This document shows, piece after piece, positions 33,716-39,913 of a stretch of 64,000 nt of DNA (its first letter is position 1; every line of letters begins with the position of its first letter). The notes beneath the pieces were generated by a model. The model had not been told where the DNA came from, ran no database searches, and saw only the letters and a list, made by a program, of their open reading frames with translations. Source of the DNA: Lutibacter sp. B2 (GTDB taxonomy: Bacteria > Bacillota > Clostridia > Peptostreptococcales > Thermotaleaceae); assembly GCA_015686845.1 (NCBI GenBank), contig JADPRS010000001.1, positions 1-64,000 on the forward strand, in the 5' to 3' direction. Position numbers and translations under genes: made by a program.

Positions 33716-33864
33716 AAAAATCTAATCTTGTCATTATTGAAAAGAAATTAAAGGCTCAAATGATTCTTAACGAATATCATCTTGTAACACCTCAAAATGG
33801 AAGATATTCTAAAGAATTGCTTAAAGCAAAAGAAGACTTTTATAATAGATTTATGTCTATATAA
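33700..33864 (+). pseudogene. C-terminal fragment of a LAGLIDADG endonuclease gene
   Basis: From 33725 the frame encodes the same final ~46 residues as the intact gene at 38363-38770 (LVIIEKKLKAQMIL...), with a few changes. The N-terminal part including the LAGLIDADG motif is absent and no start codon is available. It lies in the left copy of the 197-bp direct repeat. Confidence 0.85.
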
Positions 33865-33921
33865 ATAAAAATAGTTACACTTGAATTCAAGTGTAACCAT
33901 TTTTCTAATTGGTGGAGGCGA
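33725..33921 (+). repeat. Left copy of the 197-bp direct repeat (putative attachment end)
   Basis: It matches 38631-38827 without gaps, with 9 mismatches counted by eye. Contents: the end of the LAGLIDADG gene, the tmRNA terminator palindrome, and at 33910-33921 the complement of a tmRNA 3' end (TCGCCTCCACCA). Homology stops exactly after this tmRNA segment. Confidence 0.88.
33867..33900 (-). terminator. Displaced copy of the tmRNA terminator
   Basis: Palindrome GTTACACTTGAATTCAAGTGTAAC flanked by A- and T-runs, directly following the orphan tmRNA 3' end on the minus strand. Confidence 0.8.
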
Positions 33922-33992
33922 AGCATACTGTATCAAAACCACAATATCTAGAGAAGAGTTATATGATTACTTCTGTAGTTTTATTAGAAAAC

Positions 33993-34018
33993 AATAAAGG
34001 CATATATTTGCCTTTATT
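33993..34018 (-). terminator. Hairpin after the nuclease-helicase gene
   Basis: Stem AATAAAGGCA/TGCCTTTATT with a 6-nt loop, 70 nt past the helicase stop. The flanking T-run is weak on the minus strand and good on the plus strand. Confidence 0.5.
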
Positions 34019-34087
34019 TTACTCTCCCTTTTATTTTACCACTAACAATACCATAAACTTTTATACATATTATCAAATATTAGTAAT

Positions 34088-37000
34088 TTAATTCCACTGT
34101 AACTCTAATTCATTTAATTTATTTATTTGTTCTTCTGATAATTTGTTTTTTCTAGCCTTTTGACTAGCCACCCAACTTCCTAAGCCATTATTCTTTGGTA
34201 CATTACACTGTCCATGTTCTTCTTTATATTTTTTTAATTCATCAAATCTTTTATTCCATCTAGTAAGTCCTGGATTCCAATCAAATTTCATACTATTTAA
34301 TTCCTCAACTTGCTCCTTAGAAAGCTTATCTCTATTACGCCTTATTTTCGCAACCCATCCACCTAATTTAACATTACATTTATATCTTTGAGGTACATTA
34401 CAATCTCCATTTTGTTTATAATATTGTTTTAACTCTTCAATTTTTTCATCCCAAATTATCTTTTTTTCAAGTGTCCACACAAATCCAATACTATTTAGTA
34501 GGTCTACTTGTTCTTCTGTAAGTTTTTTTATATTTTCCCTTAATTCTCTAACCCATAAATATAATAGAATATTTTTTTTACGTACATTTTTATCCAAAGA
34601 TATCTCAATATTATCACTTACTTTTTTATATTGTTTTAGTTCAAAAAACTTTTTCATCCATGCAGTTTTTTGTGGGTCCCAATCAAAACCTATTTCATCT
34701 AACTTATTTATTATTTCATTCGATAAAAATTCTTTATATTTCCTTAACCTATTAACCCATTCATATAGTTTATAATTTTCTTTATTTGATATCCTAATAT
34801 GATTATTTCTTTCTTGGTGTATAAGTAATTTTAAATAGCCTTCATCCCAATATGTCAATATCCTATTTATCTCTTCATTAACTTCAAAGTCCCACTCAAT
34901 ATTAAGTTCATTTAATAGCTCTAATTTTATTTTATCTAAATTGCCTTTATTTATCTTTTGGTTTTTCAACCATTTCGCTAAACCTTTAAATTCTTCATCA
35001 ATATTTTCCACTTTACAATGCCCATTAACTTCTTTAAATTTTTTCAGCATTTCGTACTTTTCTTTCCATCGTTTAAAACTTTTATCCCAAATAAAACCTA
35101 TATGATTTAACTTATCAATTTGTTCTTTTGTTAATTTATTTCTACTTTGCCTCTGTATATGTATCCAATTTGCAAGGGGTTTATTTTTATCATATCTAGT
35201 AGGAACATCGCAATGTCCATGTTCTTCTTTAAATTCAACCAATTCCGTAAACATTCTATCCCATCTTTCCTTTTTATTATCCCATACAAACCCTAAATCA
35301 TTTAACTTTCTTATCTGTTCATTAGTTAACAACTTTTTATCAGTCCTCATATAATGTACCCAATTTCCCAACAATTTATTATCCTCCCATGAACGTGGTA
35401 CATTACAATGTCCATACTGTTTCTTATATTGCTTTAATTCTTCATATCTTTGTTTCCATATATACTCTTGTGGATTCCATATAAACTCTAATTCTTCGAG
35501 CATTTTAGCTTGTTCTTCTGTACATCTGTAACTTCTTCTTCTTAAACCAGCACACCACTTACCTAGTGATTTGTAGTTGCTGTCATTCTGCGGAACATTA
35601 CAATGTCCAAACTCTTGCTTAAATACTTTGAGTTCATCAATTCTCTTATTACAAATTGCATCAAGTGTACTCCACTCAAAGTCTAATTTCTCTAATTTTG
35701 TTTTTCTCTCATTAGAAAGTACTTTTTTACTACTTCTTTGAACCCTGACCCATTTCGCCAAATCACTATCTTTCCAATCAGGTGGTACCAAACAATGTCC
35801 ATATACTTCTTTAAATACTACTAATTTTCTATATTGAATCTCCCAATTATTAATTCTCTCATCAATGTCATTCAACATTTTAACTATTGCTTTAGTTTCA
35901 TCAATCACTGTAATTTGTATATCTTCTTCATTTAATCCTAGATTTTTCAACTTTCTATTTTCTTTGTTACTGGCATCTTCTAAATCTTTTATGAAATCCT
36001 TAGCTCTAATATTTCTAAAATTATTTACAAAATCAAATATTATAGGTCTATCTTCATTACCCACTTGAATACATCTACCTATTTGTTGATAAAAGACTGT
36101 GGGTGATTGTGTAGGTCTTAACAGAATTACTCCTGTCACATCTTGTATGTGCAACCCTTCATTCAACATGTCTATGCAAAATAACAAATAAATTGTATTT
36201 GTATTATTCCCTTTTTTAAATTCCTCAAGGTTTGCTCCACTTTCGGATTCACTACTAAAAACTCTATATTTTTTTCTTTTTTTCCCTAACTTAGCTTTTT
36301 GAAACCAACTTTCTACAACCCATTCCATTTCATCAAGTTGTTCTTCATTCTTACAAAAGACAATAAATTTATTCAATTCATTAGTTGTATATTTTTTTAT
36401 AATTTTATGTATGCCATTAGTTTTCTCCCACTCTAATTTATAGTTATGAATCTGCTTTTTTATTGTCTCTTTGTTCTTATCATTTTCTCTAGCGTTTTCA
36501 ATCTTATTGTATAAACAATCTATCTCTTCATCTAAAGTATATAAAGCTGCAATATACATAGGCATCGGGAGAATTTTTTTAATAATGGCTTCTGCTAAAC
36601 TTAAATTACTTACACTTTTACCTTCAAATAATTCATCCCTCATATCTCTAGAACCATCTAAGTATCTAACTGGAGTAGCTGTAGTCCCTAATATATAAGC
36701 CTCCTTATAAGAATCTAATATATTATTTACTCCTCTCCCCCATTCCTCTGCACCACATCTATGAAACTCATCTAATATAATCAAAGAAACATTTAATTCT
36801 TTTATTTCATCATTTGTTAAACGCATTGCTTTTGAATATGTCATAAAAATAGTATTATCTCTAGTCCACCCTATTCTTTTTTTTGTTTGGTTTAATATGT
36901 ATTTAGAAGGTGCTAATATAAGTTTTATCTTAGTCATGAACTTAGAGAATACTTTTGCTATTATATATGTTTTTCCTGTTCCTGTAGCTTGAACAACTGC

Positions 37001-37546
37001 AACTTTTTTTGTTCTTTTCCATTCTTCTAAGATATCATCATATGAACTCTTGTTATGAGCATACAATTCTATATCTGGCCCTTTTTTATTGTTTGGATCA
37101 TAATTTTCAATTAGTGTATTTATATGTGTCCAGTCTTCAAGAAGAATATTGAATTTTCTTAATTTATTAGCTTCATTAACAAACCCATTGATTGATACAA
37201 GTTTGTATTGATTGCAATTATACTTTAGGCTTGCTTCTTCTCTAAATTTAATTAATTCTATCCTTGTATTATCAAAAGAAAGTGGGTTTCTTTGATTTTT
37301 AGCTTGAACAATAAACATAACTTTGCTTGGGTTTTCAGGATGATATAGTAAAATGTCAGCTCCCATATCATTTTTACCACCTACTCTACTAGCAATCCAC
37401 CCATTTCCATTGTATAATTCTTTTAAATATTGTTCAAAAACTACACCTTTTTCATTAATAGGTAAATTCTCAAGAAAACTTTTGATTTCTAAAAAACTTC
37501 TACTCATAGTTAGATCTATTAATTTCTCATAATAAGCTTTATTCAT
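34088..37546 (-). CDS. Mrr-like nuclease / SF2 helicase / helicase-associated-repeat fusion
   Basis: 1,152 residues. The N-terminus is a restriction-endonuclease-like domain with Glu39, GAD (Asp64) and QAK (Gln81, Lys83), a PD-(D/E)xK arrangement as in Mrr. An SF2 helicase follows: ATGTGKT (186-192), LDEFHRC (258-264), LGTTATP, and QQIGRC (motif VI). From about 565 to the end run nine helicase-associated (HA) repeats of ~63 residues with the pattern GHCNVP...LG.WV..R...L...Q...L...GF.W. Repeats 5-7 are the most diverged. It sits alone with its own promoter between the direct repeats, so it is probably cargo. A role in recognising and cutting foreign DNA is plausible; no known named defence system is recognised. 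Confidence 0.9.
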   Translation of the reverse strand: MNKAYYEKLIDLTMSRSFLEIKSFLENLPINEKGVVFEQYLKELYNGNGWIASRVGGKNDMGADILLYHPENPSKVMFIVQAKNQRNPLSFDNTRIELIKFREEASLKYNCNQYKLVSINGFVNEANKLRKFNILLEDWTHINTLIENYDPNNKKGPDIELYAHNKSSYDDILEEWKRTKKVAVVQATGTGKTYIIAKVFSKFMTKIKLILAPSKYILNQTKKRIGWTRDNTIFMTYSKAMRLTNDEIKELNVSLIILDEFHRCGAEEWGRGVNNILDSYKEAYILGTTATPVRYLDGSRDMRDELFEGKSVSNLSLAEAIIKKILPMPMYIAALYTLDEEIDCLYNKIENARENDKNKETIKKQIHNYKLEWEKTNGIHKIIKKYTTNELNKFIVFCKNEEQLDEMEWVVESWFQKAKLGKKRKKYRVFSSESESGANLEEFKKGNNTNTIYLLFCIDMLNEGLHIQDVTGVILLRPTQSPTVFYQQIGRCIQVGNEDRPIIFDFVNNFRNIRAKDFIKDLEDASNKENRKLKNLGLNEEDIQITVIDETKAIVKMLNDIDERINNWEIQYRKLVVFKEVYGHCLVPPDWKDSDLAKWVRVQRSSKKVLSNERKTKLEKLDFEWSTLDAICNKRIDELKVFKQEFGHCNVPQNDSNYKSLGKWCAGLRRRSYRCTEEQAKMLEELEFIWNPQEYIWKQRYEELKQYKKQYGHCNVPRSWEDNKLLGNWVHYMRTDKKLLTNEQIRKLNDLGFVWDNKKERWDRMFTELVEFKEEHGHCDVPTRYDKNKPLANWIHIQRQSRNKLTKEQIDKLNHIGFIWDKSFKRWKEKYEMLKKFKEVNGHCKVENIDEEFKGLAKWLKNQKINKGNLDKIKLELLNELNIEWDFEVNEEINRILTYWDEGYLKLLIHQERNNHIRISNKENYKLYEWVNRLRKYKEFLSNEIINKLDEIGFDWDPQKTAWMKKFFELKQYKKVSDNIEISLDKNVRKKNILLYLWVRELRENIKKLTEEQVDLLNSIGFVWTLEKKIIWDEKIEELKQYYKQNGDCNVPQRYKCNVKLGGWVAKIRRNRDKLSKEQVEELNSMKFDWNPGLTRWNKRFDELKKYKEEHGQCNVPKNNGLGSWVASQKARKNKLSEEQINKLNELELQWN

Positions 37547-37610
37547 ATAATCACCTACAATTTATAATTTGTAATTAATTCCATATACATTATACCTCAC
37601 AATGGTAAGC

Positions 37611-37638
37611 ATTATAAGACATGGAACTACTATGTCAA
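37611..37638 (-). promoter_or_regulatory. Promoter of the nuclease-helicase gene
   Basis: Minus strand TTGACA (37633-37638), 16-bp spacer, TATAAT (37611-37616), about 65 nt before the ATG. The rest of 37547-37764 shows no gene. Confidence 0.75.
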
Positions 37639-37764
37639 AATGTAATATTCGTACTTACATCTAATTTTAGTATCCATGCCTAATATTATAAATATTATTG
37701 AATTTTACTTTATAGGTCCCATAAATATTAACCTGTATTAAAATCATAATGAGATGTAACTTAA

Positions 37765-37992
37765 TTATATATTTAAATTTTCATATAAATTATTAATTTC
37801 ATCTTGTCTTATCCCTAAATATCTTCGTGTAACTTCAAGGTTGTAATGATTTAATGTATCCATAATTAAAGCTGGACTATATCCATTTATCCAAACATTC
37901 CACCCCCAGATTTTACGCAAGCTATGCGTATTAATATTTTCTTCTATTCCTACTGCTACTGCGGCATTTTTAAGAATTTGTGTTGCTCTCGA
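37765..37992 (-). pseudogene. C-terminal remnant of a tyrosine recombinase (integrase)
   Basis: About 76 codons with the end of a phage-type integrase: NTHSLRK (His-x-x-Arg of the active site), ALIMDTLNHYN (second His) and TRRYLGI (catalytic Tyr), then a typical LGI.QDEI..LY tail. A TAA lies in frame just upstream and no start codon is available; the core-binding domain and the first catalytic Arg are gone. It is probably the element's former integrase. The adjoining 38001-38340 holds nothing I recognise. Confidence 0.85.
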
Positions 37993-38362
37993 TTATATTA
38001 CAAGGGACAGTTTATTAAAATTTAAAGAATAAAAACATTCCTTAATCTCACTAATTTTTTTGATTTCATTTTATATAATTCGCATAAGTTTATCCTAATA
38101 CTAAATTTTAAATAACACAAATAATCTGCATTTAAACTTAAACCCAGATTTTGGTCTTATGATAATATGTTTTTATATAATGCTTTAATTATCCCACAAG
38201 AATGGCTTTTTAATCTTTTTTATCATGCCCTGATAATTTACAAAACCGCCTATCACATACAAACTCGTTACCAAAATTGTTTGTTGAATATATTATGAAA
38301 CTGAATATTTTTCTTCTAACAACATAAATTAATACCAGAACATACGTTTAGGAGGTCTATTT

Positions 38363-38770
38363 ATGTCACCAGAAGAAAAAGCATATATTGCTGGGATTAT
38401 TGACGGAGAAGGTAGTATTATGCTTATTAAATTCCATAAAAATCAATTCCCTTCTCCTTGCGTCACTATTGCTTCAACTTCTATAGAATTATTAGAATGG
38501 ATAAAAGAAAAAAGTTGTGTTGGTCATATTAAATCTAAGAAGAATTACAATCCAAATAAACATAAAGATTCTTACACCTATTTAACTAAATATAGAGATG
38601 CTATATTTCTATTAAAAGAAATAGAAGCTTATCTTGTTATTATTGAAAAGAAATTAAAGGCTCAAATGATTCTTAACGAATATCATCTTGTAACACCTAG
38701 AAATGGAAGGTATTCTAAAGAATTACTTAAAGCAAAAGAAGACTTTTATAATAGATTTATATCTATATAA
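38363..38770 (+). CDS. LAGLIDADG homing endonuclease (single motif)
   Basis: 135 residues with one LAGLIDADG motif, AYIAGIIDGEGSI (7-19), so it should act as a homodimer. AGGAGG is 9 nt before the ATG. The gene converges on the tmRNA gene: its stop is 45 nt from the tmRNA 3' end, with the shared terminator palindrome between. It lies outside, not inside, the group I intron. It may promote spread of the intron or of the whole locus by cutting an intron-less tmRNA gene. Regulatory or DNA-binding roles are also known for this fold. A truncated second copy is at 33700-33864. Confidence 0.88.
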   Translation: MSPEEKAYIAGIIDGEGSIMLIKFHKNQFPSPCVTIASTSIELLEWIKEKSCVGHIKSKKNYNPNKHKDSYTYLTKYRDAIFLLKEIEAYLVIIEKKLKAQMILNEYHLVTPRNGRYSKELLKAKEDFYNRFISI

Positions 38771-38827
38771 ATAAAAATGGTTACACTTGAATTCAAGTGT
38801 AACCATTTTTGTAATTGGTGGAAGCGA
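38631..38827 (+). repeat. Right copy of the 197-bp direct repeat
   Basis: Counterpart of 33725-33921. It contains the last third of the intact LAGLIDADG gene, the tmRNA terminator and the functional tmRNA 3' end (TCGCTTCCACCA as complement at 38816-38827). Confidence 0.88.
38777..38810 (-). terminator. tmRNA terminator
   Basis: AAAATGGTTACACTTGAATTCAAGTGTAACCATTTTTATT on the minus strand: a 24-nt perfect palindrome with extended A/T arms, 6 nt past the tmRNA CCA end. On the plus strand it can also end the LAGLIDADG transcript. Confidence 0.88.
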
Positions 38828-39429
38828 GGGGACACATATTCCATTATTTCTAATGGTGCTGACTATATCTTGCAGTTAATTACTTAACTGCTCTGGCGTA
38901 TTATAGAAGTCTTAATATAGTTTATAACTTCCATCCTAGTACATCCCATTAGGATGCCTATAAGTCGATACAGAGCTGTTGGATTACTCCACATACTCCT
39001 CGGCATTGCCGTCGTCTTTACGTTACGGTTTCACCGATCAAGCCAGATTTTCACTTGCAGTTCACACTACAAGGCGACTCTTTTTGAATCGAACCCCTGT
39101 CCGAAAGTCCTTTACCAATAGATTCTCCGAGTGCAGTCATTGTTTTAATTCTCGTCATCACAATCGCCCAATGACAGGCTACTGATCAGACCAGCCTTAA
39201 TTAGTCAGCTTTTAGGTCAAGGCATCCCTAAAGCAGTTCCCCACCTTAATGACGTTCTGATCCTACGCCGTGGGAAGCATAGGGAGAACGAGCAACTATA
39301 TTAAGCTGCTAAAACGAAATTATCGTCTGCGTTTATGTTTAGTTCCTCAGTTTTTTAAGGCGGACCCCAAGGAAAAACCTCCACTCGCTACTATGGGCTC
39401 CAAACCCCCGTCGAGACCTTTACGCCCCC
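38816..39429 (-). ncRNA. ssrA: tmRNA (SsrA), interrupted by a group I intron
   Basis: The 5' end GGGGGCGTAAAGGTCTCGAC is the canonical tmRNA start. The tag frame at 39301-39330 encodes ADDNFVLAA and then TAA. The 3' end is CGCTTCC-A-CCA, pairing with GGGGGCG through two G-U pairs. The T-arm is split: exon 1 is 39088-39429 (342 nt, ending GGGGTTCGAT) and exon 2 is 38816-38832 (17 nt, starting TCCCC). Joined, they give a perfect AGGGG-TTCGATT-CCCCT T-arm and a mature RNA of about 359 nt. tmRNA with SmpB rescues stalled ribosomes and tags the nascent chain for proteolysis. It lies 16 nt after smpB with no convincing promoter of its own, so it is probably processed from the smpB transcript. Confidence 0.95.
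38833..39087 (-). ncRNA. Group I intron in the tmRNA T-loop
   Basis: 255 nt without an ORF. The 5' exon ends CGAU, which pairs with intron GUCG 11 nt into the intron, giving P1 with the required U-G at the splice site. The intron ends in G directly before UCCCC. The conserved S element AAGATATAGTC (P7 3' strand) is the complement of 38861-38871 and is followed by a P9-like hairpin CCATTAGAAATAATGG (38841-38856). Removing it restores an intact T-arm. Intron borders fixed by these criteria should be accurate to a base. Self-splicing is inferred. Confidence 0.9.
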
Positions 39430-39445
39430 ATGTATATGCAAAAAT

Positions 39446-39913
39446 CTAATGAGATTTTTGTTTTCCTCTAAATTCTTGTTCGATACGACGTTGAGCATCT
39501 TTCTTCGCTATATCTTGTCTCTTATCATAAAGTTTCTTTCCTTTTGCCACTGCAATCTCTACCTTTACCAATCCTCTAGGGTTAAGATAAATTTTAAGAG
39601 GTACTAATGTTAGTCCTTCCAGTGTTGTATAACCTATTAATTTACTGATTTCTTTTTTATGAAGCAAAAGTTTTCGTGTTCTTATAGGATCTACATTGAA
39701 AATATTCCCTTGCTCATATGGGCTTATATGCATTTGATGAACAAACATTTCTCCATCATCAATTTGTGCATAGCTTTCTTTTAAATTTACTTTCCCTGCT
39801 CTAATAGACTTTACTTCTGTACCTGTTAAAACCATTCCAGCTTCATAGGTTTCTTCTATAAAGTAATCATGTCTAGCTTTTTTATTGTTTGCAATTAGTT
39901 TGCCTACTCCCAT
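39446..39913 (-). CDS. smpB: SsrA-binding protein SmpB
   Basis: 155 residues. Conserved segments: [31 protein letters not shown] and the C-terminal [25 protein letters not shown] tail, which enters the ribosomal decoding centre and mRNA path. It binds the tRNA-like domain of tmRNA, whose gene starts 16 nt downstream. A small perfect hairpin (AAAAATCT/AGATTTTT, 39440-39459) spans the smpB stop and may separate or guide processing of the two products. Confidence 0.97.

What the first reader, a model, noticed from the sequence alone, without database searches (positions are those of the whole stretch)
38816..39429. tmRNA gene split in its T-loop by a compact group I intron
The sequence directly shows a tmRNA whose T-arm is broken by 255 nt. 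P1 pairing across the 5' site (CGAU with GUCG), a terminal G, an AAGATATAGTC S element and a P9 hairpin identify a group I intron. Splicing restores an exact 5-bp T-stem and 7-nt loop. Group I introns in tmRNA genes have been reported, but are rare. Ribosome rescue in this organism should depend on a ribozyme step, which could act as a control point.
Basis: partly seen in the sequence, partly recalled or inferred. Interest (0 to 1): 0.8.

Follow-up and report, generated by a model that had tools for sequence, protein, structure and literature searches.

The report
Split tmRNA with next-door homing endonuclease
A bacterium's ribosome-rescue RNA gene is interrupted by a self-splicing intron, and the DNA-cutting enzyme that probably spreads this intron is encoded not inside it but right beside the gene, behind what looks like a DNA-damage switch, an arrangement found in dozens of related bacteria.

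Summary
In detail: ssrA (tmRNA, minus strand 39429-38816) is interrupted in the T-loop by a 255-nt group I intron (38833-39087), supported by Rfam (below gathering) and by strong covariation. The intron is of a known kind: 883 such genes are catalogued (PMC11915505). It is not rare: at least 61 of 249 species sampled from one Bacillus-side order carry it. Directly behind ssrA, convergent and sharing a terminator-like palindrome, lies a free-standing LAGLIDADG endonuclease gene (38363-38770). Close relatives of this gene nearly always sit in intron-bearing genomes: in the 249-species sample, 33 of 35 endonuclease-positive genomes carry the intron, while 2 of 172 genomes with a detected intronless site have a hit. 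Among 71 named genomes with an open endonuclease gene and a located tmRNA, 69 have the intron, two have the unusual T-loop TTCGACA, and none has an uninterrupted TTCGATT site. The gene is under purifying selection and often preceded by a LexA/SOS box. Best reading: a two-part mobile element, in which a neighbouring, probably damage-induced homing endonuclease cuts intronless tmRNA T-arms so that intron and endonuclease are copied in together. Cleavage, homing, splicing and SOS induction are inferred, not shown.

The parts
39088..39429 (-). tmRNA (ssrA) exon 1, 342 nt, ending ...AGGGGTTCGAT
   Evidence: RF00023; exon junction by sequence
39301..39330 (-). tmRNA tag reading frame, ADDNFVLAA-stop
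   Evidence: translation
38833..39087 (-). group I intron, 255 nt, inserted between T-loop nucleotides 6 and 7 (TTCGAT|T); P1-P9 with P7.1 and P7.2
   Evidence: RF00028 28.4 bits, E 1.3e-5, below gathering; covariation on 44 introns; fold z -5.4
38861..38871 (-). conserved AAGATATAGTC (3' strand of P7, S element)
   Evidence: P7 pairs invariant in 44 of 44, hence uninformative for covariation
38841..38856 (-). P9 hairpin CCATTA-GAAA-TAATGG
38816..38832 (-). tmRNA exon 2, TCCCCTCGCTTCCACCA (T-stem 3' strand, acceptor stem, CCA)
   Evidence: sequence
38773..38810 (.). perfect 38-nt palindrome, probable two-way terminator shared by ssrA and the endonuclease gene
   Evidence: inverted repeat I6, sequence; terminator function inferred
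38363..38770 (+). free-standing single-motif LAGLIDADG homing endonuclease gene, 135 aa, convergent with ssrA
   Evidence: Pfam LAGLIDADG_1 E 0.004 and LAGLIDADG_3 E 0.006, both below gathering; profile hits I-Vdi141I 5e-6, I-PanMI, I-MsoI; AlphaFold2 pLDDT 94.4; Foldseek top hits I-Vdi141I, I-CreI, I-MsoI
38338..38349 (+). LexA/SOS-box-like GAACATACGTTT, start 25 nt before the endonuclease ATG; the only GAAC-N4-GTTY in the 64-kb window
   Evidence: Firmicutes motif in PMC2248561 and PMC4234289
38350..38355 (+). probable ribosome-binding site AGGAGG of the endonuclease gene
   Evidence: sequence
38625..38827 (.). 203-nt direct repeat, ssrA-proximal copy: endonuclease 3' part + palindrome + tmRNA acceptor end
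   Evidence: repeat D2, 95%
33719..33921 (.). 203-nt direct repeat, distal copy: endonuclease C-terminal fragment (remnant) + palindrome + tmRNA acceptor end
   Evidence: protein match 86% over residues 86-135
39446..39913 (-). smpB, tmRNA-binding protein
   Evidence: NCBIfam NF003843/TIGR00086, E 4.5e-65
37765..37920 (-). possible remnant of a tyrosine integrase C-terminus
   Evidence: Pfam Phage_integrase E 0.024, below gathering

Best explanation
The locus is a two-part mobile element in the tmRNA gene. Part one is a group I intron at T-loop position TTCGAT|T; after transcription it removes itself and restores a normal T-arm (structure shown, splicing inferred). Part two is a small LAGLIDADG endonuclease encoded outside the intron; its stop codon lies 45 nt from the tmRNA CCA end and the two genes point at each other. 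I propose that this enzyme, probably a homodimer like I-CreI, cuts tmRNA T-arm DNA that lacks the intron. Repair from the intron-bearing allele then copies intron, short exon 2, terminator and endonuclease gene in together ('collaborative homing'), and the intron itself destroys the cut site in the donor. A LexA box in front of the gene suggests that the enzyme is made during the SOS response, when recombination is also switched on. Shown: anatomy, conserved pairing of the two parts, purifying selection on the enzyme, SOS-box enrichment. Inferred: cutting, its site, homing, SOS induction, splicing.
For: (1) Named-genome scan: of 179 relatives the best 80 were kept; 68 of 80 lie next to an intron-bearing tmRNA 3' end (one of them, L030, next to a displaced piece without the 5' splice site, its genome's tmRNA having the intron). 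For 8 of the other 12 the genome's tmRNA has the intron but lies apart from the endonuclease gene. (2) Unselected sample of 249 Bacillus-side genomes: endonuclease hits in 35, of which 33 have the intron; 172 have a detected intronless site, of which 2 have a hit; Fisher p 6e-21, or 3e-19 without the 3 introns found only because the genome had a hit; relatedness ignored, 16 genomes with neither detected left out. (3) Clostridia-side order sample: 10 of 393 genomes have a relative, all 10 at an ssrA. (4) Of 72 open endonuclease genes among the 80 (plus my reading), 71 have a locatable tmRNA: 69 with intron, 2 with T-loop TTCGACA, 0 with uninterrupted TTCGATT. Intronless tmRNAs with TTCGATT occur beside broken remnants (L011, L013). 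TTCGACA is 1 of 122 intronless sites in the Clostridia-side order. (5) Endonuclease and intron distances correlate after controlling for SmpB (partial r 0.66, 0 of 5000 permutations). (6) Median dN/dS 0.15, 48 pairs. (7) LexA box in 42 of 99 distinct upstream regions, 4.7 per kb against 0.025 elsewhere.
Against: No cleavage or homing was tested; the cut site is inferred from which genomes lack it. Many introns have no detected endonuclease: on the Bacillus side 30 of 58 have none within the fetched flank, 26 of 58 none anywhere; in Clostridia 12 of 17 none within the flank, at least two of these having one further along the same contig (G657, G747). Intron and endonuclease distances also correlate strongly with SmpB, so much of the pattern may be vertical descent. 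Two sister Clostridium species keep an open, conserved endonuclease gene without the intron. In genome G023 an endonuclease and intron contig of 4.3 kb coexists with an intronless TTCGATT tmRNA on another contig; I take it for a misbinned contig (same sequences in L042, another MAG), but did not prove it. I did not exclude second tmRNA copies in the named genomes. Loci named Clostridium lack the LexA box except L031. The intron scores below Rfam's gathering threshold.
Confidence: 0.7

Rival explanations
1. The LAGLIDADG protein is a maturase: it helps the tmRNA intron fold and splice, and the genes stay together for that reason.
For: [quoted passage not shown] the gene is conserved and follows the intron.
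Against: 26 of 58 Bacillus-side intron genomes have no detected relative at all, and 12 of 17 Clostridia introns none within the fetched flank, at least two of those having one further off. Two intronless Clostridium species keep the gene open with dN/dS 0.05 between them. An SOS box fits a nuclease better than a splicing helper for an RNA needed all the time.
Confidence: 0.1
2. The endonuclease is an ordinary free-standing homing gene whose target is elsewhere near ssrA (e.g. its own downstream insertion site). The intron only hitch-hikes, or the association reflects shared history.
For: Free-standing enzymes often cut hundreds of bp or more from their gene (PMC2988022 passage). Remnants persist beside intronless tmRNAs (L011, L013). 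Host and element distances correlate.
Against: 33 of 35 endonuclease-positive genomes with intron; 2 of 172 intronless genomes with a hit; no open gene together with an uninterrupted TTCGATT site among 71 named genomes; TTCGACA in the two exceptions.
Confidence: 0.15
3. The endonuclease gene is cargo or a passenger of genomic islands that integrate into ssrA; its contact with the intron is a by-product of island traffic.
For: A 203-nt repeat flanks a 4.9-kb segment with a possible integrase remnant in the window; several relatives have other DNA between tmRNA and endonuclease gene.
Against: In 68 of 80 named loci the gene lies beside an intron-bearing tmRNA end, in 58 of these with only 28-128 nt from stop codon to CCA end, so islands are not needed to explain it.
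Confidence: 0.05

Closest known systems
Group I introns at T-loop position 7 of tmRNA (PMC11915505, 2025; passages and part 1 of 2 of its results section read; first report Williams 2002 cited there, not held, not read)
   Same: Same gene, same insertion point, -1 U in a U-G pair, terminal G, predominantly Bacillota, mostly without an endonuclease gene inside.
   Different: That paper counts endonuclease genes inside introns only (36 of 883); what I read of it does not mention a gene next to ssrA.
Collaborative homing in T3/T7-like phages and a cyanophage, and a similar arrangement in phage ICP1 (passages in PMC3984707, PMC10448857; PMC2988022 passage)
   Same: [quoted passage not shown] in the worked phage cases the enzyme's target is the intron insertion site.
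   Different: Here the enzyme is LAGLIDADG, the host is a chromosomal RNA gene, the gene is convergent behind the target, it is spread over two large bacterial groups, and an SOS box often precedes it. Cleavage is not yet shown.
Single-motif intron-encoded LAGLIDADG enzymes I-CreI, I-MsoI, I-Vdi141I
   Same: Fold and single motif; best sequence and structure matches.
   Different: Those are encoded inside their introns; sequence identity in the structural alignments is about 13-25%.
LexA/SOS regulon of Firmicutes (Cheo box GAAC-N4-GTTC; passages in PMC2248561, PMC4234289)
   Same: Box sequence and position in front of the gene.
   Different: The search for LexA with homing endonucleases listed nothing that by title or abstract start describes a LexA-controlled homing endonuclease; only the listing was seen.

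Membership tests
tmRNA (RF00023) | covariance-model match over gathering score | tested here: met
   127.9 bits against 47
tmRNA (RF00023) | tag reading frame, acceptor end with CCA, smpB partner | tested here: met
   ADDNFVLAA-stop and CCA; smpB directly upstream
Group I intron (RF00028) | Rfam match over the curated gathering score | tested here: not met
   28.4 bits against 50, E 1.3e-5 in 295 nt; not reported in wider searches
Group I intron | P3-P8/P4-P6 core with P7 pseudoknot, supported by covariation | tested here: met
   95.9% of cells paired; changes on both sides in 44 of 64 pairs; P7 and P1 invariant, so uninformative
Group I intron | U-G pair at the 5' splice site and terminal G | tested here: met
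   U-G in 44 of 44; terminal G by sequence
Group I intron | guanosine-initiated self-splicing | not testable with these tools
   needs RNA
Group IA subgroup | P7.1/P7.2 between P7 and P3 | tested here: met
   helices 9 and 10, changes on both sides in 10 of 13 pairs; subgroup rule recalled, not looked up
LAGLIDADG homing endonuclease | LAGLIDADG motif with acidic residue, alpha-beta fold | tested here: met
   AGI-x-DGEG core invariant in 45 sequences apart from position 13; fold; Pfam hits are below gathering
LAGLIDADG homing endonuclease | site-specific DNA cleavage | not testable with these tools
   needs protein
[quoted passage not shown]
   window; 68 of 80 named loci have gene and intron adjacent (the introns there were not each checked for ORFs)
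[quoted passage not shown]
   0 of 71 genomes with an open gene keep an uninterrupted TTCGATT site; no biochemistry
SOS (LexA) regulon | GAAC-N4-GTTY box at the promoter | tested here: met
   window 38338-38349; 42 of 99 upstream regions
SOS (LexA) regulon | LexA binding and damage induction | not testable with these tools
   needs experiment

The most novel reading that the evidence does not exclude
Many tmRNA group I introns look immobile because their endonuclease is outsourced. Across Bacillota, intron and a neighbouring, often SOS-boxed LAGLIDADG gene form one split homing element that invades the tmRNA T-arm after DNA damage. The T-arm's built-in inverted repeat suits a homodimeric enzyme, and tmRNA alleles with T-loop TTCGACA escape it.
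Probability: 0.55. Interest if true: 0.75.

Novelty: new variant of a known kind. Interest (0 to 1): 0.62.

Why it matters
The 2025 tmRNA survey noted that only 4.1% of tmRNA introns carry an endonuclease gene, against 54% of archaeal rRNA introns. This locus offers an answer: in a large share of the Bacillota sampled the gene, or a remnant of it, is next door. It would move collaborative homing, described in phages in the passages I read, into bacterial chromosomes at scale. It would also couple homing to the SOS response and give a ready set of presence, decay and absence states for testing how composite mobile introns arise. It would explain one source of traffic at a gene that genomic islands also use.

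Tried and rejected
Searching the own genome with RF00028 did not report the window's intron, and the control rang in 8 of 14 genomes (2 over the cut-off), so I did not use that route for counting; I used an exact DNA pattern, which misses variants (3 known misses: G824, G879, G926). Those 3 were found only because their genomes had an endonuclease hit, a bias in favour of the association; leaving them out gives 30 of 58 against 2 of 172, p 3e-19.

Phage or plasmid carriers: the viral-contig scan gave 46 relatives, 25-62% identical in the matched segments, none of whose loci hit the intron/exon profile (0 of 46). The intron pattern in viral contigs gave 20 matches, none an intron by profile (0 of 20). 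Phage records gave 9 relatives at 31-35% and one 39-nt DNA match; plasmids none.

Considered and rejected: a broken tmRNA (the exons restore a perfect T-arm); an intron-internal endonuclease (the longest frame overlapping the intron is 68 aa); chance association (tests above).

Tallies by script were partly automatic. 'Intact' was called by open frame, motif and start codon. The script of 80 intact; I added 5 that are open but were flagged for motif or start codon (L065, L073, L076, L082, L088), giving 72 open and 8 broken. 99 of the 179 relatives were not returned and not examined. In one search the 'NOT' marks for L065, L073, L076, L082 and L088 came from the first regex, and L158/L159 were cut by the locus edge. 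For the Mantel tests I kept 55 taxa and then dropped a duplicate, L148 (54 taxa); loci without full intron, long SmpB or near-full endonuclease were left out. The LexA tally merged identical upstream regions (138 loci to 99) and includes broken genes, loci whose start codon was only projected, and L270, a distant relative not at ssrA. In the 249-genome table 16 genomes with neither an intron nor an intronless site detected were left out, and a pattern match was taken for a tmRNA without reading each locus.

Full report
What is there. On the minus strand, ssrA runs from 39429 to 38816 directly behind smpB (39446-39913). Rfam's tmRNA model matches at 127.9 bits, anchored up to the T-loop, and the T-arm resumes 255 nt later. 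The insert is 38833-39087. Joining the exons gives a 359-nt RNA with T-stem AGGGG/CCCCT, loop TTCGATT and tag ADDNFVLAA.

Is the insert a group I intron? RF00028 covers it end to end at 28.4 bits, E 1.3e-5, but below the family's gathering score, and wider searches did not report it. I therefore tested the structure independently. I wrote P1-P9 with P7.1 and P7.2 by hand from the window sequence and counted it on 44 rows, 43 introns from other loci and the window's own. 95.9% of 2,809 cells pair; 44 of 64 pairs have changes on both sides; 498 cells change on both sides, against a mean of 161 in shuffles, and sliding the partners drops pairing to 30-41%. P1 and P7 never vary and so neither support nor oppose. 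This is a group I intron, with IA-like P7.1/P7.2 (subgroup rule recalled).

Known kind. PMC11915505 (passages and part 1 of its results section read) lists 883 intron-form tmRNAs, in 21 phyla for the main position, and notes that only 36 carry an endonuclease gene inside. It is not rare here: the exact pattern GGTTCGAT-N-GTCGC-N-ATCGGTGA occurs in 17 of 391 genomes of the window's class and 58 of 249 of the order that contains Neobacillus drentensis.

The neighbour. Immediately behind ssrA, on the other strand, is a 135-aa frame (38363-38770) with the motif AYIAGIIDGEGSI. Pfam LAGLIDADG models hit below gathering. A five-sequence profile finds I-Vdi141I (5e-6), I-PanMI and I-MsoI; AlphaFold2 with a 45-sequence alignment gives pLDDT 94.4, and Foldseek ranks I-Vdi141I, I-CreI and I-MsoI first. 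A perfect 38-nt palindrome lies between the two genes (38773-38810). AGGAGG precedes the ATG.

Is the pairing conserved? Three views. (a) In the Clostridia-side order, 10 of 393 genomes have a relative at E<=1e-4, and all 10 lie at an ssrA: five open genes, all beside an intron (window, L005, L006, L008, L009; L009 is a 4.3-kb contig that I suspect is misbinned); two broken with intron (L007, L012); two broken without intron (L011, L013); one frameshifted beside a displaced intron-bearing tmRNA 3' piece, behind an intact intronless tmRNA (L010/L014). (b) In named genomes, 179 relatives, best 80 kept: 68 of 80 beside an intron-bearing tmRNA end, in 58 of the 68 with 28-128 nt from stop codon to CCA end; one of the 68 (L030) is a displaced piece, and one intron (L028) is partly masked. 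Of the other 12, eight have the intron in their genome's tmRNA, six of them further along the same contig and two on another contig; two (Clostridium folliculivorans, C. manihotivorum) have an intronless tmRNA with T-loop TTCGACA; one has a broken gene and intronless TTCGACT (L051); one genome (L038, Tissierella praeacuta) gave no tmRNA over the cut-off. (c) In 249 Bacillus-side genomes, endonuclease hits at E<=1e-6 occur in 35. 30 of these are among the 58 pattern-positive genomes; three more have variant introns (G824, G879, G926). The two exceptions are a 49-aa remnant (G803) and a 38% relative on another contig than its tmRNA (G896). 172 genomes have a detected intronless T-arm, none of them pattern-positive; 16 have neither and were left out. 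Table 33/28 against 2/170, Fisher p 6e-21; for the 20 strong hits (E<=1e-45, two of them with a stop), 20 against 0, p 1.6e-13. Without the three introns found through their endonuclease hits: 30 of 58 against 2 of 172, p 3e-19; strong hits 19 against 0, p 3e-13. These tests ignore relatedness.

The converse is looser. Of the 58 pattern-positive Bacillus-side introns, 16 have a full endonuclease gene within the fetched flank, 12 a partial one, 30 none; four of the 30 have one elsewhere in the genome, leaving 26 with none detected. Of 17 in Clostridia, 5 have one within the flank, of which L143 and L155 are broken; of the other 12, G657 and G747 have one further along the same contig (the contigs of L030 and L035), and L146 and L147 seem to keep remnants (my reading). 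This is what a homing cycle predicts: gain, decay of the enzyme, persistence of the intron.

Target logic. If the intron protects the cut site, an active gene should not coexist with an open site. Of 72 open genes among the 80 (plus my reading), 71 have a locatable tmRNA: 69 with intron, 2 with TTCGACA, none with uninterrupted TTCGATT; second tmRNA copies in these genomes were not excluded. In the Clostridia-side order, intronless sites read GATT 64, GACT 39, AATT 12, AACT 4, and GATA, AAAT, GACA once each, of 122; the single GACA is G034, which carries the frameshifted gene. The two Clostridium species are close sisters (97% identical genes), so this is one event plus G034. Within one genus, G003 and G002 are 95.7% identical over 916 nt up to the T-loop; G002 continues with intron and endonuclease gene, G003 with an intronless TTCGATT end and a 23-residue remnant containing a stop about 4 kb downstream. 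A counter-case is G023, which on paper has both an open gene with intron (C39) and an intronless TTCGATT tmRNA (C27).

Selection and co-inheritance. Median dN/dS is 0.15 over 48 pairs with dS under 1.5, range 0.035-0.258. Distances of endonuclease and intron correlate at 0.90 in 54 taxa; with SmpB held constant 0.66 (0 of 5000 permutations), 0.46 in Clostridia (15 taxa, 1 of 5000) and 0.58 in Bacilli (39 taxa, 0 of 5000). Both also follow SmpB (0.84, 0.85), so vertical descent is substantial.

SOS box. GAACATACGTTT starts 25 nt before the window gene's ATG and is the only GAAC-N4-GTTY in 64 kb. Of 99 distinct upstream regions, 42 have the box, against a mean of 0.2 in mononucleotide shuffles and 16 of 1,239 control starts; density 4.7 per kb upstream against 0.025 elsewhere in the same loci. 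The Firmicutes LexA motif is given as CGAACRNRYGTTYC, with Cheo box GAAC-N4-GTTC, in PMC2248561 (passages); GAAC....GTTT is listed in front of lexA and recA of C. difficile in PMC4234289 (passages). Loci named Clostridium lack it, L031 excepted.

Mechanism. I read this as collaborative homing: intron and free-standing enzyme sharing one target. PMC3984707 and PMC10448857 (passages) describe it in phages; PMC2988022 (passages) calls it an evolutionary scenario and reports a trans-homing case in T4. My full-text searches for tmRNA with group I introns, LAGLIDADG or homing endonucleases, for free-standing and collaborative homing and for LexA with homing endonucleases listed no paper whose title or abstract start describes an endonuclease gene beside tmRNA; the lists were capped, most subscription papers are not in that library, and listings were seen, not all texts.

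The window's own history. A 203-nt, 95% direct repeat (33719-33921 and 38625-38827) brackets 4.9 kb with a possible integrase remnant and a helicase; each copy ends in a tmRNA acceptor end, and the distal copy holds only the last third of the endonuclease gene. An island probably entered ssrA at its 3' end. The ssrA-proximal copy carries the full gene, so the element may also travel with islands (inference).

Noticed in passing
L001 (own genome contig C19:4055-7305): gyrA appears to be interrupted twice, by an insert with group-I-like motifs and by a second one that contains a LAGLIDADG-like frame. RF00028 gave 18.3 bits, E 0.039, in the genome search; no Rfam match at E<=0.01 in L001, so the intron reading is mine from the sequence.
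   Followed up: partly
window 33719-38827: 4.9-kb segment between two 203-nt repeats at the ssrA 3' end, with a possible integrase remnant and a 1152-aa helicase with nine matched helicase-associated (HA) stretches and an Mrr-like domain.
   Followed up: partly
L010 (G034), L030, L034: The P7.2 region of these introns holds a small extra insert with GGGGA...TCCCC-type sequence, perhaps a short repeat element.
   Followed up: no
L156 (G583:C39): tmRNA intron that seems to have lost the P7-P8 region, so it should not splice; either a pseudogene copy or an assembly problem.
   Followed up: no
L010 (G034:C103): Intact intronless tmRNA followed by a displaced tmRNA 3' piece that still holds the intron and a frameshifted endonuclease gene: perhaps a fossil of island replacement at ssrA.
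   Followed up: partly
L009, L040, L042, L148: The same intron and endonuclease gene appears in differently named MAGs, suggesting misbinning.
   Followed up: partly
window 38816-39429: ARAGORN reports no tmRNA or tRNA in the window, so intron-form tmRNAs can be lost in routine annotation.
   Followed up: yes
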